From the NCBI RefSeq assembly GCF_023218075.1, contig NZ_JALPTB010000053.1, positions 1 to 45,498 on the forward strand: 45,498 nt of DNA. The letters run 5' to 3'. Below, piece by piece: positions 32,762-35,872 of this stretch. Under the pieces are notes generated by a model. It saw only the letters and a list, made by a program, of their open reading frames with translations. It did not search any database and was not told the origin of the DNA. Source of the DNA: Rhodococcus sp. HM1 (GTDB taxonomy: Bacteria; Actinomycetota; Actinomycetes; Mycobacteriales; Mycobacteriaceae). A program made the translations under genes and the position numbers. Each line of letters starts with the position of its first letter. The first letter of the stretch is position 1.

Positions 32762-32989
32762 ATGACGGATTCCCGAAGCTCTTCTCGCGAACCGGAACCC
32801 ACCGCCGATTTCGGCGCCCCCGTGTTCGCCGGAACGGAAATCGACCAGAGTGTCGGATTCGACGACTCGCCCGGCGTCGCCGACGTCCCGTCCGAGGAGG
32901 GCGCGCACGCGCTCGAGCCGTGCAGCGAAGGTGACATCCCCACGGCATCCGTCGCCGACCTGATCCGCCAGTACACACCTGAAGGGTGA
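32762..32989 (+). CDS. Small acidic protein, first gene of the protease cassette
   Basis: This 75-aa protein is rich in Asp, Glu, Ser and Pro, with no signal peptide or membrane segment and one Cys (EPCSEGD, residue 54). The N-terminal two-thirds look disordered; the last 15 residues (ASVADLIRQYTPEG) could form a short helix. The strong GAGGAGG before ATG 32762 and its place 6 bases ahead of the next gene make it a real gene. I do not recognise a family. In a cassette with two proteases it could be a substrate, inhibitor or pro-peptide, but that is inference. Confidence 0.7.
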   Translation: MTDSRSSSREPEPTADFGAPVFAGTEIDQSVGFDDSPGVADVPSEEGAHALEPCSEGDIPTASVADLIRQYTPEG

Positions 32990-32995
32990 TCGACG

Positions 32996-33340
32996 ATGGA
33001 AATCCGCTTTCGCAACAACTATCCCGCCACGGTATCGGTGGCGGTGATGTTCTACAGCCCCGGAACCTGTGGCAATCACGGTAATTGGGGGACGCGCGGC
33101 TGGTGGAACATCGCACCCGGACAGATGGCGCATGTACTCAACACCACCAACCGATTCATGTACTACTACGCCGAGGCCGGCGACGGCGCCCGGTGGGTCG
33201 GGAACTTCGGTCCGATGTACGTCTACCGGAACAGTTTCGATTCGTGCATCAACATCGGATCCACGGCCGCGATCGGTCGCGTAGGAACACGGCAGATCGA
33301 CACCGGAGGAAAGAACACGATCGTCAACCTGAACCCCTGA
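32996..33340 (+). CDS. DUF1036-like small protein in the protease cassette
   Basis: This 114-aa protein has no signal peptide. It begins MEIRFRNNYPATVSVAVMFY and contains GNWGTRGWWNIAPGQMAHVL followed by a Tyr-rich strand FMYYYAEAG and GARWVGNFGP. This resembles the DUF1036 pattern (N-terminal strand, RGWW..PG, aromatic strand). Two Cys residues are at 25 and 83. It looks like a small all-beta domain. It lies 6 bases after the acidic protein and 58 bases before the metzincin. Role unknown; in this setting it could be a sensor, toxin-like effector or protease substrate. Confidence 0.68.
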   Translation: MEIRFRNNYPATVSVAVMFYSPGTCGNHGNWGTRGWWNIAPGQMAHVLNTTNRFMYYYAEAGDGARWVGNFGPMYVYRNSFDSCINIGSTAAIGRVGTRQIDTGGKNTIVNLNP

Positions 33341-33398
33341 CCCCTACCCGAACCGGGGGGATCGTCCGTCCCGCCGGAAAACCCATCGAGGAAATGCC

Positions 33399-34088
33399 AT
33401 GACCGAAAACAATGCCCGACATTTCTGTTCACTGGTGTTGCCGCCACAGGCCACCGAGAAGACCCGGGCCGCGCTGCTGAAGGAATCGAAATGGGGCGTC
33501 GGAGATCGGGTCACCGTCCGATTCCTCGAGGGCGATCCGGACCTGCGGCGACGGGTACGCAACGTCGCAGAGGAATGGACCGGGGAGAAGATGGCGAATC
33601 TCTCTTTCCGCTTTGTGGATTCGGGTCCGGCGGACATCCGGATCGGCTTCGAACAGGGCGACGGATCCTGGTCGTACCTGGGCACCCAGTGCCGGCAGAT
33701 CCCTCCGGCGGAACGCACGATGAACTACGGGTGGCTCACTTCCTCGTCGTCCGACGACGAGCTGCGCCGCGTCGTCCTCCACGAGTTCGGGCATGCGCTC
33801 GGGCTCATCCACGAGCATCAGAACCCGAACCGTCCGATCGCGTGGAACCGCCGGGCCGTCATCGCCGACCTGTCGGGTCCGCCCAACAATTGGGATCCCG
33901 CGACGATCGAGCACAACATCTTCAAACGGTATGACCCGCGGTCGGTTTCGGCCACGCCCACCGATCCGGACTCGATCATGATGTATCCGATTCCGGCCCG
34001 GTGGACCACCGACGGATTCTCCGCGGATCTCAATTCCGAACTGTCCGATACGGACAAGGAGTTCATCCGTGATGCCTACCCGTGGTGA
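33399..34088 (+). CDS. Cytosolic metzincin-type zinc metalloprotease
   Basis: This 229-aa protein has the full metzincin zinc motif HEFGHALGLIH at residues 128-138 (His128, His132, His138 as ligands, Glu129 as base) and a Met-turn SIMMYPIP at 192-199. Together they resemble astacin/matrixin-type proteases. Residues 38-115 supply the N-terminal sheet (VTVRFLEGDPDLRRRV, ADIRIGFEQGDGSWSYLG). There is no signal peptide, and the only room for a pro-region is the first ~35 residues, so it probably works inside the cell or leaves by another route. ATG 33399 has GAGGAAA upstream. Its end overlaps the CHAT gene start by 20 bases. Confidence 0.85.
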   Translation: MTENNARHFCSLVLPPQATEKTRAALLKESKWGVGDRVTVRFLEGDPDLRRRVRNVAEEWTGEKMANLSFRFVDSGPADIRIGFEQGDGSWSYLGTQCRQIPPAERTMNYGWLTSSSSDDELRRVVLHEFGHALGLIHEHQNPNRPIAWNRRAVIADLSGPPNNWDPATIEHNIFKRYDPRSVSATPTDPDSIMMYPIPARWTTDGFSADLNSELSDTDKEFIRDAYPW

Positions 34089-35772
34089 GCATCGGACTCG
34101 GGAGGCCGGTCGTTCCGTGACCGGCCTCCTGGCACGTACCGTGCGGGCGGTGGCGAAAGTCCTCGCCCGCCTCCTTGCCCTGGTCCACCGCGATACCGAC
34201 CTCGACGAAACCGAAGCGGCACCGGATGCGACAGTGGCCGAGACATTTCCGGAGGATCGAATCCTCGAATCCGCCCCGGCAGCCGAACCGTCGACCGGCA
34301 CCCGCACGGCTTACGCGCGGCTCGACGCGCCCGATCGAGTCGCCCCGGGTGGTGTCTTCGAGCTGGATGTGGGTCTCGCGGAGTCACCCGGACGCGGCGT
34401 CACGAGTCCCCAACCTCTCTCGGTTCCGGACACGGAATTCACTTTGACGGTGACGGTTTCGGCCGACGGCTTCGAGGTGCTGGGTGGCGCCTCGCTTGTC
34501 CGCACCATCGCCGTGAATCCCGACGATCCCTATCCGTACGACGTGATCCGGTTGCGTGCGATCGACGACGTCGCCCTGACGCCGGCCCGCAGCATCCTTG
34601 CCGTGTACGCGATCGAGGGTCGCACGATCGGGATCGCCACTAGGTCGGTGGTGGTCGGCGACGGTGCCGTCCCCGCCGAGCCCGAGCGAGCCGGCGTCGA
34701 TTGGGTGCTGCCGACCGATCCGGACACGCGGCCCGATCTGGAACTGGTGGTCACGCCCGGCAACGACGTCGGCGGGCAGCGCCTGTTCTGGTATTTCCGG
34801 TCTCCGCATCCGACGGTCGGTGACGGCAGTTTCGTCGCCGCGGATCTTCCTGTGACGGTCGCGACCACCGTGCGGCAACTACTGAACGGCGTCGAGGACC
34901 GCACGACCCTCGACGATCTGCCCTACTACCTGCGCGGCGTCGGCCGGCGTATCGCCGACGCGATTCCCGATCCGGTATGGCAGGCATTGAAGGCCACGGC
35001 CGACGCGGTGGAGGGTCCGCCGAGTGTGCTGCTCGCGTCCGCCGACCCGTACATCCCGTGGGAGCTGGCCCGCATCCCGTGGTGCCACGACGACCCGCCC
35101 CTCCTCGGTGCGCAGACCGTCATCGGCCGCTGGCCGTACCTGGCGAACGGCCGGAGCCCCGCTCCCGCTCCCCGCCTCGAACTGGATTCGATGGCCGTCG
35201 TCTTCGGGGAGTACTCCGGCGGTGAGAATCTCGAGGAGGCTGCGCGGGAGGCCGCCCACCTGCGTGCGCACTATGCGGCGCAGCCCGTCGACGCACGGAT
35301 GAGGGACATCCTGCGCTGCCTCGACGGCACCCCGAGGGCAGACGCGCTGCATCTCGCGGTGCACGGCAACTTCGACCCGACCGGCATGCGCGACGGTATC
35401 TACCTCGTCGACGGCAACTATCTGAGCCCGGTGTCCGTCGAAGGAGTCGAGTCGAGCCCGATTCGGCTGGCGTTCCTCAATGCCTGCCAGCTCGCACAGG
35501 GCCGCGAGGTGTTCGGCATCTATGCGGGTATGGCGTTCGCACTGTTGAACATCGGCGCCGAAGCGGTGGTCGCACCGTTGTGGAAGGTGAACGACACCGC
35601 GGCCCGTGAACTCGCGGCGGCGTTCTACCCCGCCCTGTTCACCGATGTGCGATCGCCTGCCGAATTCCTGCGTGAATCCCGGTGCCTGTCAGTGGAGACG
35701 AACCCCGCAGCGACCTCCCTCGCCTACATCTACTTCGGTCATCCGCTGCTGCGGGTGAAGTGGATCCCTTAG
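34069..35772 (+). CDS. CHAT-domain (caspase-like) protease
   Basis: This 567-aa protein starts at GTG 34069 (AAGGAG 8 bases upstream; ATG 34072 and GTG 34117 are alternatives). It has a basic helical N-terminus (15-40), an acidic linker, a beta-sandwich-like domain at about 80-200, and a C-terminal CHAT domain from about 225. CHAT hallmarks are DPYIPWELARIPW (327-339), His432 in LHLAVHGNF and Cys473 in LAFLNACQLAQG, the expected catalytic pair. It lacks the TPR repeats common in CHAT proteins. It overlaps the metzincin gene, so the two proteases are made together. A defence or programmed-death role is likely by analogy with other CHAT systems. Confidence 0.85.
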   Translation: MMPTRGEHRTREAGRSVTGLLARTVRAVAKVLARLLALVHRDTDLDETEAAPDATVAETFPEDRILESAPAAEPSTGTRTAYARLDAPDRVAPGGVFELDVGLAESPGRGVTSPQPLSVPDTEFTLTVTVSADGFEVLGGASLVRTIAVNPDDPYPYDVIRLRAIDDVALTPARSILAVYAIEGRTIGIATRSVVVGDGAVPAEPERAGVDWVLPTDPDTRPDLELVVTPGNDVGGQRLFWYFRSPHPTVGDGSFVAADLPVTVATTVRQLLNGVEDRTTLDDLPYYLRGVGRRIADAIPDPVWQALKATADAVEGPPSVLLASADPYIPWELARIPWCHDDPPLLGAQTVIGRWPYLANGRSPAPAPRLELDSMAVVFGEYSGGENLEEAAREAAHLRAHYAAQPVDARMRDILRCLDGTPRADALHLAVHGNFDPTGMRDGIYLVDGNYLSPVSVEGVESSPIRLAFLNACQLAQGREVFGIYAGMAFALLNIGAEAVVAPLWKVNDTAARELAAAFYPALFTDVRSPAEFLRESRCLSVETNPAATSLAYIYFGHPLLRVKWIP

Positions 35773-35787
35773 GCGGCTCCGCCGCCG

Positions 35788-35827
35788 GTGTGTCGTTGTG
35801 GCGGCTCCAACCGCCACAACGGCACAC
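35788..35827. terminator. 17-bp hairpin after the CHAT gene
   Basis: Arms 35788-35804 and 35811-35827 pair over 17 bases with one G-U wobble around the loop CTCCAA. A short GGCGGC/GCCGCC hairpin lies just before it. It closes the CHAT cassette and lies between convergent genes, so it may also serve the MpaB-family gene ending at 35873. Confidence 0.8.
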
Positions 35828-35872
35828 CGAGGGATCGGCGCCGCTTCGACGGCGGCAAGAAGTAGGGCTGGG

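What the first reader, a model, noticed from the sequence alone, without database searches (positions are those of the whole stretch)
32762..35772. Undescribed-looking cassette: acidic peptide, DUF1036-like protein, metzincin and CHAT protease
Four tightly packed genes (gaps of 6 and 58 bases, then a 20-base overlap) place two unrelated proteases with intact catalytic residues next to each other: zinc site His128/Glu129/His132/His138 and CHAT His432/Cys473. They are preceded by two tiny proteins of unknown function. None has a signal peptide, and the unit has its own palindrome-bearing promoter and terminator. CHAT proteases are activated in several bacterial defence and death systems. A cascade in which one protease activates the other, or cuts one of the small proteins into an effector, is a natural hypothesis. 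I know of no named system with this composition.
Basis: partly seen in the sequence, partly recalled or inferred. Interest (0 to 1): 0.85.

Follow-up and report, generated by a model that had tools for sequence, protein, structure and literature searches.

The report
Bacterial zymogen protease with its activator
A soil bacterium (Rhodococcus) carries, side by side, a zinc protease predicted to be made in a locked form and a caspase-related protease that likely unlocks it by a single cut; such pairs recur in distant bacteria and would be a bacterial counterpart of the protease cascades behind cell death in animals.

Summary
The four genes are real. Two findings change their meaning. (1) The metzincin's nearest solved relative is myroilysin (about 44% identical), an M12A protease with a proven cysteine switch. 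The window protein belongs to an apparently cytoplasmic subfamily with Cys10 in 118 of 118 homologues that have the N-terminus and Lys/Arg23 in 116 of 120, directly before the residue aligned with the start of the myroilysin chain without prosegment (5zjk). It is most likely a zymogen activated by a cut after a basic residue. (2) In 15 of 17 loci of this subfamily the next gene is a clan CD cysteine protease: caspase-like in 12 (Actinobacteria, Proteobacteria, Eremiobacterota), CHAT in 3 Rhodococcus. The two loci without one carry Glu23. Metacaspases and separases cut after Arg/Lys, so the partner is likely the activator. The acidic peptide and DUF1036 protein form their own pair, also found beside metzincin-caspase loci in two Arthrobacter. 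Nothing was tested at the bench; trigger and targets are unknown. My searches of the held library found no description of this pair; the closest published logic is the caspase-nuclease (canu) system.

The parts
32762..32989 (+). 75-aa acidic peptide (pI 4.1), motif REPEPTxxF ... DIPxxxVA(D/E)LxR; role unknown
   Evidence: conserved in R. zopfii, R. phenolicus, Arthrobacter mobilis and a second Arthrobacter (G667); a small acidic ORF precedes DUF1036 in 9 of 10 loci examined
32996..33340 (+). 114-aa DUF1036-like protein
   Evidence: PF06282 E 5.8e-7; 34 homologues
33399..34088 (+). 229-aa metzincin of the myroilysin (M12A) type, predicted cysteine-switch zymogen
33426..33428 (+). Cys10 codon, predicted zinc-blocking switch residue (motif N-x-R-H-[FY]-C)
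   Evidence: Cys in 118 of 120 homologues, the other two lack the N-terminus
33465..33470 (+). Arg23-Ala24, predicted activation cleavage site
   Evidence: K/R23 in 116 of 120; residue 1 of the 5zjk myroilysin chain falls at Ala24
33780..33812 (+). zinc-binding motif HEFGHALGLIH (H128, E129, H132, H138)
   Evidence: sequence; invariant in 120 of 120
34069..35772 (+). 567-aa CHAT protease: helix 17-41, beta-domain about 78-198, separase/Csx29-like CHAT fold
35362..35364 (+). CHAT catalytic His432 codon
   Evidence: invariant in the 34-row alignment
35485..35487 (+). CHAT catalytic Cys473 codon
   Evidence: invariant in the 34-row alignment
35786..35829 (.). hairpin between the convergent CHAT and MPAB-type genes, possible bidirectional terminator without a T run
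   Evidence: 19-base arms, 95% complementary

Best explanation
The cassette encodes an apparently cytoplasmic zinc protease of the myroilysin family, predicted to be made as an inactive cysteine-switch zymogen, directly followed by a CHAT protease that likely activates it by cutting after Arg23, so that one protease would switch on the other. Shown by sequence: the four genes, intact catalytic residues in both proteases, invariant Cys10 and nearly invariant Lys/Arg23 in the metzincin subfamily, the match of Ala24 to the first residue of the myroilysin chain that lacks the prosegment, and a clan CD cysteine protease (caspase-like or CHAT) as the next gene in 15 of 17 close loci. Inferred: Cys10 blocks the zinc; the neighbour makes the activating cut; the freed Ala24 N-terminus then pairs with Glu139 as in astacins; the active metzincin degrades cytoplasmic targets and stops growth or kills the cell in response to an unknown trigger (phage, rival or stress). 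The acidic peptide and DUF1036 protein form a separate conserved pair that likely controls the proteases, for example as substrate, inhibitor or adaptor. CHAT and caspase-like proteins look like interchangeable activators of one conserved executioner zymogen.
For: Zymogen: best fold and sequence match is myroilysin (5gwd 44%, 5czw 43%, Foldseek E 2.5e-25; [quoted passage not shown] Cys10 is present in 118 of 118 homologues that have the N-terminus and K/R23 in 116 of 120 (these are the best 120 of 4418 hits). In 5zjk, which lacks the prosegment, residue 2 aligns with window residue 25, so residue 1 falls at Ala24; the pro-form chain has Arg just before it. Glu139, the astacin glutamate, is invariant. 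Partner: in 15 of 17 close loci the next gene is a clan CD peptidase, from a 64-base overlap (L093, start not refined) to a 28-base gap in 14 measured loci. The 12 caspase-like partners keep the His/Cys pair and an Asp (12 of 12, read from the alignment) that aligns with the ND motif of metacaspase-9 for L019. Metacaspases cut after Arg/Lys and separases after Arg (PMC4357240, Table 2 passage); the window CHAT has the Csx29/separase/gingipain R fold. Natural contrast: the 15 metzincins with such a neighbour all have K/R23, the two without (L017, L027) have Glu23. CHAT outside Rhodococcus: four exact contig-length coincidences between the CHAT and metzincin homologue lists, no near-miss within 5 bases. 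Small proteins: the peptide-DUF1036 pair lies beside metzincin-caspase loci in both Arthrobacter genomes that carry it, of 10 searched.
Against: Arg at the cleavage site is not unique to loci with a clan CD neighbour: myroilysin has it, and so do 7 of 24 distant relatives by an automatic anchor (L044 was mis-anchored and reads Arg by eye). The Glu23 contrast is one lineage (L017 and L027 are close relatives); P0002, P0037 and P0060 also have Glu23 with unknown context. Of five partner caspases scanned whole against Pfam, only three reach C14 (L019, L022, L093; not L026 or L092); the others rest on a profile built from five of the twelve, on PADLOC (L026) and on the aligned His/Cys pair. The metzincin model is uncertain in residues 1-30 (block means 47-60), so the switch was not seen in it. 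Distant CHAT relatives have no metzincin nearby in 8 distinct loci. The window CHAT lacks the N-terminal region of its longer homologues, so no sensor is evident. No trigger or substrate is known, and CHAT specificity for Arg23 is not shown.
Confidence: 0.55

Rival explanations
1. The metzincin is a zymogen but activates itself or is activated by any trypsin-like protease; the CHAT or caspase neighbour is a parallel effector sharing a regulator, not its activator.
For: Arg at the same site in myroilysin and in 7 of 24 distant relatives. Kineococcus L020 and the more distant Bradyrhizobium locus L094 also have trypsin-like genes nearby.
Against: Immediate downstream clan CD neighbour in 15 of 17 close loci, overlapping or within 28 bases in the 14 measured; the site is basic in 116 of 120 subfamily members against 7 of 24 distant relatives.
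Confidence: 0.25
2. [quoted passage not shown] the CHAT protein is the responder.
For: Published modules pair a zincin-like peptidase with a small rapidly diverging protein, one type being acidic (PMC7159879 section 24). The peptide has a conserved C-terminal segment.
Against: [quoted passage not shown] The peptide profile matched in only 5 of the 17 close metzincin loci (window, L015, L016, L021, L101); DUF1036 with a small acidic ORF also occurs where no metzincin is near (L038, L041); no MoxR, vWA or VMAP gene among the 17 window proteins scanned.
Confidence: 0.12
3. An anti-phage system in which CHAT is the infection sensor and the metzincin its suicide effector.
For: Partner caspases L019 and L026 match the PADLOC caspase model (E 9.1e-15 and 1.9e-15) and a Kineococcus neighbour matches the PADLOC model named nacht (E 2.5e-70). 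Accessory, patchy distribution beside a conserved gene pair.
Against: No PADLOC hit for the four window proteins below E 0.05; the flanking genes that were scanned look metabolic; no phage assay.
Confidence: 0.3

Closest known systems
Myroilysin (MEROPS M12A)
   Same: Fold, about 44% identity, HExxHxxGxxHE, Arg before the chain start of 5zjk; cysteine switch likely shared
   Different: No visible signal peptide here (by eye); genetically paired with a clan CD protease
Caspase-nuclease (canu) and nuclease-protease pairs of Hachiman and AVAST (PMC12799240; abstract, part of the introduction and section 8 read)
   Same: A protease encoded beside a pro-effector that it activates by site-specific cleavage
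   Different: There the effector is a metallo-beta-lactamase nuclease; here it is itself a protease
Peptide-processing modules of VMAP/FtsH ternary conflict systems (PMC7159879; section 24 and passages read)
   Same: Zincin-like peptidase beside a small acidic protein; the caspase with alpha/beta-hydrolase pairing resembles the R. zopfii extension
   Different: No MoxR, vWA or VMAP component among the window proteins scanned; different partner genes
Craspase (gRAMP plus TPR-CHAT/Csx29)
   Different: No Cas gene recognised among the window genes; a beta-domain instead of TPRs in front of CHAT

Membership tests
Myroilysin-type M12A metzincin | HExxHxxGxxHE zinc site with Met-turn | tested here: met
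   H128, E129, H132, H138, E139 invariant in 120 of 120; SIMMYPI in the sequence
Myroilysin-type M12A metzincin | prosegment cysteine that blocks the zinc | tested here: inconclusive
   Cys10 conserved but N-terminal model confidence low; zinc contact not shown; alignments to the pro-form start after Cys10
Myroilysin-type M12A metzincin | secreted with signal peptide | tested here: inconclusive
   by eye no hydrophobic N-terminal stretch before the NxRHxC motif; no dedicated predictor was run
canu caspase-nuclease system | caspase plus metallo-beta-lactamase pro-nuclease | tested here: not met
   no nuclease and no C14 domain among the four genes
Craspase | gRAMP effector and Csx30 beside TPR-CHAT | tested here: not met
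   none among 17 window proteins scanned with Pfam or recognised in the window gene list; the rest of the genome was not searched
VMAP ternary system with peptide processing | MoxR, vWA and VMAP genes beside the peptidase | tested here: not met
   none among 17 window proteins scanned; other window genes judged from the list only
CHAT domain protease (PF12770) | CHAT domain with His and Cys pair | tested here: met
   Pfam E 2.2e-15; His432 and Cys473 invariant; fold
bacterial gasdermin operon | gasdermin gene next to the protease | tested here: inconclusive
   no gasdermin hit among the four proteins, but no dedicated bacterial gasdermin model was used

The most novel reading that the evidence does not exclude
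A widespread bacterial cytoplasmic protease cascade: a matrix-metalloprotease-like executioner zymogen locked by a cysteine switch and released by an adjacent caspase-like or CHAT initiator, with the initiator exchanged between lineages and with a peptide-DUF1036 regulatory pair, used for immunity or programmed death.
Probability: 0.35. Interest if true: 0.87.

Novelty: new variant of a known kind. Interest (0 to 1): 0.72.

Why it matters
If right, bacteria would have a protease-to-protease zymogen cascade inside the cell, the logic of animal apoptosis and of matrix metalloprotease activation, built from a caspase-family initiator and a metzincin executioner. It gives one-residue tests (C10, R23) that can be run in a laboratory strain, and it extends the protease-activated pro-effector principle, shown for nucleases (PMC12799240), to a protease effector. 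It would also give a role to a subfamily within a large group of homologues (4418 hits at E below 0.001, of which only the best 120 were examined).

Tried and rejected
Considered and dropped: (a) a conserved four-gene system across bacteria: rejected, since the full order was seen only in the three Rhodococcus. (b) The peptide as a precursor cut at a PR-S site: four of five sequences have Arg there but the window has Cys. (c) The 'third gene' ending in YGGWRLP, found in 10 of 12 caspase loci (not L019, L093) and in both loci without a clan CD neighbour, was looked for in the window and in L015, L016 and L054-L056 and not found; eight of its hits belong to the sequences its profile was built from. 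(d) A K/R23 rule unique to clan CD-linked loci: rejected, 7 of 24 distant relatives have Arg (the anchor is also doubtful for L028 and L083). Those 24 are not all relatives found: 11 of the 17 other class genomes and 7 of the 11 viral loci were used. (e) The metzincin-DUF1036 contig-length coincidence of 1085 was dropped as likely chance, since three near-misses within 1 base occur. (f) Plasmid and viral searches with the metzincin gave 15 plasmid records and 11 viral loci; the regions of 3 of the 15 plasmid hits were fetched. L092 and L093 show the caspase pairing by profile, L094, a more distant relative, by its annotation and Pfam; no viral locus matched the caspase profile. (g) The part of the CHAT model before residue 80 is barely covered in the VIA-align list, so nothing is said about its fold. 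(h) In one search, L101 and L038 also offer a basic overlapping ORF (pI 12) with a longer gap; the acidic one was taken.

Literature searches for the combination: CHAT domain with metzincin, DUF1036 with CHAT, caspase with M12 family metallopeptidase, and a five-term search on caspase, metalloprotease, zymogen, anti-phage and bacterial each returned 0 papers; these cover only the held open library, and the broader listings were seen only as capped lists. PMC3501461, PMC8195603 and PMC4357240 were seen only as passages.
Full report
What is there. The window is Rhodococcus: its genus in the genome set includes genomes that match R. zopfii and R. phenolicus records. The four ORFs exist as described. 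The peptide has no Pfam match; the others match DUF1036, M10/M12A metallopeptidases and CHAT. PADLOC gives nothing better than E 0.07 for any of the four. The cassette lies between an FAD oxidoreductase (PF00890) and a convergent MPAB-type oxygenase gene, in a region with luciferase-like monooxygenases and an acyl-CoA dehydrogenase; transport genes further off are read from the gene list only.

Distribution. In the genus, the metzincin is in 3 of 18 genomes; the same three carry the CHAT gene at high score, a fourth has only a weak match. The MPAB gene is in 12 of 18 genomes at E 1e-100; in nine of these the match to the window stops at the edge of the cassette. So the cassette is accessory at one site. 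In R. zopfii, between the same flanks, it continues with a second CHAT protein (DUF7363-CHAT) and a protein with a C-terminal caspase domain (PF00656 E 5e-20) and a GHSAG motif in its N-terminal part that looks like an alpha/beta-hydrolase (my reading; no Pfam hit). The window and R. phenolicus lack these two genes.

The metzincin is a predicted zymogen. Foldseek and HMMER both put myroilysin far ahead of every other structure. A review states that myroilysin is latent through a cysteine switch (PMC9848320, passages). The window protein has the motif N-A-R-H-F-C; Cys10 is present in 118 of the 120 listed homologues and the other two lack the N-terminus. The 5zjk chain of myroilysin lacks the prosegment (taken here as the mature form; the review cites a 2020 structure of mature myroilysin); its second residue aligns with window residue 25, so its first falls at Ala24, and the pro-form has Arg just before. 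Window Arg23 is Lys or Arg in 116 of 120 homologues, followed by Ala24 in 118 of 120. The AlphaFold model has mean pLDDT 83 but is poor for residues 1-30, so latency is inferred.

The neighbour is a clan CD protease. Of 17 loci of the close subfamily with readable context (window, L015-L027, L092, L093, L101), 15 have a clan CD cysteine peptidase as the next gene: CHAT in three Rhodococcus, caspase-like in twelve, from Pseudonocardia, [Mycobacterium] manitobense, Kineococcus, three Arthrobacter, Modestobacter, an Eremiobacterota MAG, Antarcticirhabdus, Janthinobacterium, Sinorhizobium and Cupriavidus. L101 came in through its DUF1036 gene, not the metzincin. The two exceptions (L017, L027) are close relatives, Smaragdicoccus and a Nocardiaceae MAG. 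The caspase profile was built from five of the twelve (L019, L020, L022, L025, L026). Pfam C14 is reached by L019, L022 and L093 but not by L026 or L092 of the five scanned whole; L026 matches the PADLOC caspase model. A third gene ending in YGGWRLP is in 10 of the 12 caspase loci and both exceptions. All 12 partner caspases keep the His/Cys pair and a conserved Asp; in L019 it aligns with metacaspase-9 (E 0.018). That this Asp lines the S1 pocket is recalled, not shown. Metacaspases cut after Arg or Lys and separases after Arg (PMC4357240, passage). The window CHAT model (pLDDT 82) matches Csx29, separase and Arg-gingipain. The 15 metzincins with a clan CD neighbour all have Lys or Arg at the site; the two without have Glu. 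Together these make the neighbour the likely activator.

Limits. Arg at the site occurs in myroilysin and in 7 of 24 distant relatives by an automatic anchor that misread at least L044. Outside Rhodococcus, CHAT-metzincin proximity rests on four exact contig-length matches between 119 metzincin and 51 CHAT entries. The longer CHAT homologues carry an N-terminal region (LRR in one, P0168) that the window protein lacks.

The small proteins. A small acidic ORF (pI 4.1-5.4) ends within 12 bases of the DUF1036 start in 9 of 10 loci (L039 has none). The pair lies directly beside, and divergent from, metzincin-caspase-third gene in one Arthrobacter (L101) and one gene away in A. mobilis (L021). In four other actinobacterial genomes with DUF1036 no metzincin was found nearby (L038-L041, L040 being only 5.8 kb), and [Mycobacterium] manitobense has both on different contigs. 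DUF1036 of this kind is rare (5 of 394 class genomes), so its presence beside the metzincin in both Arthrobacter that carry it (2 of 10 searched) is unlikely to be chance. Its function is unknown.

Setting. Several loci gather more proteases: Kineococcus adds trypsin-like and subtilase genes, the trypsin matching the PADLOC model named nacht; Pseudonocardia nigra adds a second clan CD gene, a CHAT protein with a SAVED_CHAT match; the more distant Bradyrhizobium locus has a trypsin protein. Published parallels are the protease-activated pro-nucleases and canu (PMC12799240, abstract and section 8) and the zincin plus small protein modules of ternary conflict systems (PMC7159879 section 24). A conflict or death role is therefore plausible but untested.

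Verdict. The best reading is a protease-zymogen pair in which a clan CD protease likely unlocks a cysteine-switch metzincin, with exchangeable activators. It is a new variant of the protease-activated pro-effector principle.

Noticed in passing
L015:12626-16635 (R. zopfii): Cassette extended by a DUF7363-CHAT protein and a caspase protein with a GHSAG motif in its N-terminal part; absent from the window.
   Followed up: partly
L020:5077-7159 (Kineococcus indalonis): Trypsin-like gene matching the PADLOC model named nacht (E 2.5e-70) and a subtilase gene beside the metzincin-caspase pair.
   Followed up: partly
L018:13827-15785 (Pseudonocardia nigra): CHAT protein (weak AAA match) with SAVED_CHAT and BovA model matches downstream of metzincin, caspase and third gene.
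   Followed up: no
L017:10678-11205, L018:13127-13678, L021:13089-13649: Unnamed 'third gene' family ending in YGGWRLP with no Pfam hit in the two members scanned, accompanying the metzincin even where no caspase is present.
   Followed up: partly
[not shown]
   Followed up: no
window:39676-43688: OGG-like glycosylase gene (PF21790) and a 1045-aa SF1 helicase-like ORF on opposite strands, about 4 kb downstream of the cassette.
   Followed up: no
L081:8001-8591 (viral contig): Metzincin relative (49% identity) with an N-terminal YC motif on a viral contig.
   Followed up: no
L025:6854-8221 (Antarcticirhabdus): Amidase_3 gene with a C-terminal M15 peptidase domain just upstream of the metzincin.
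   Followed up: no
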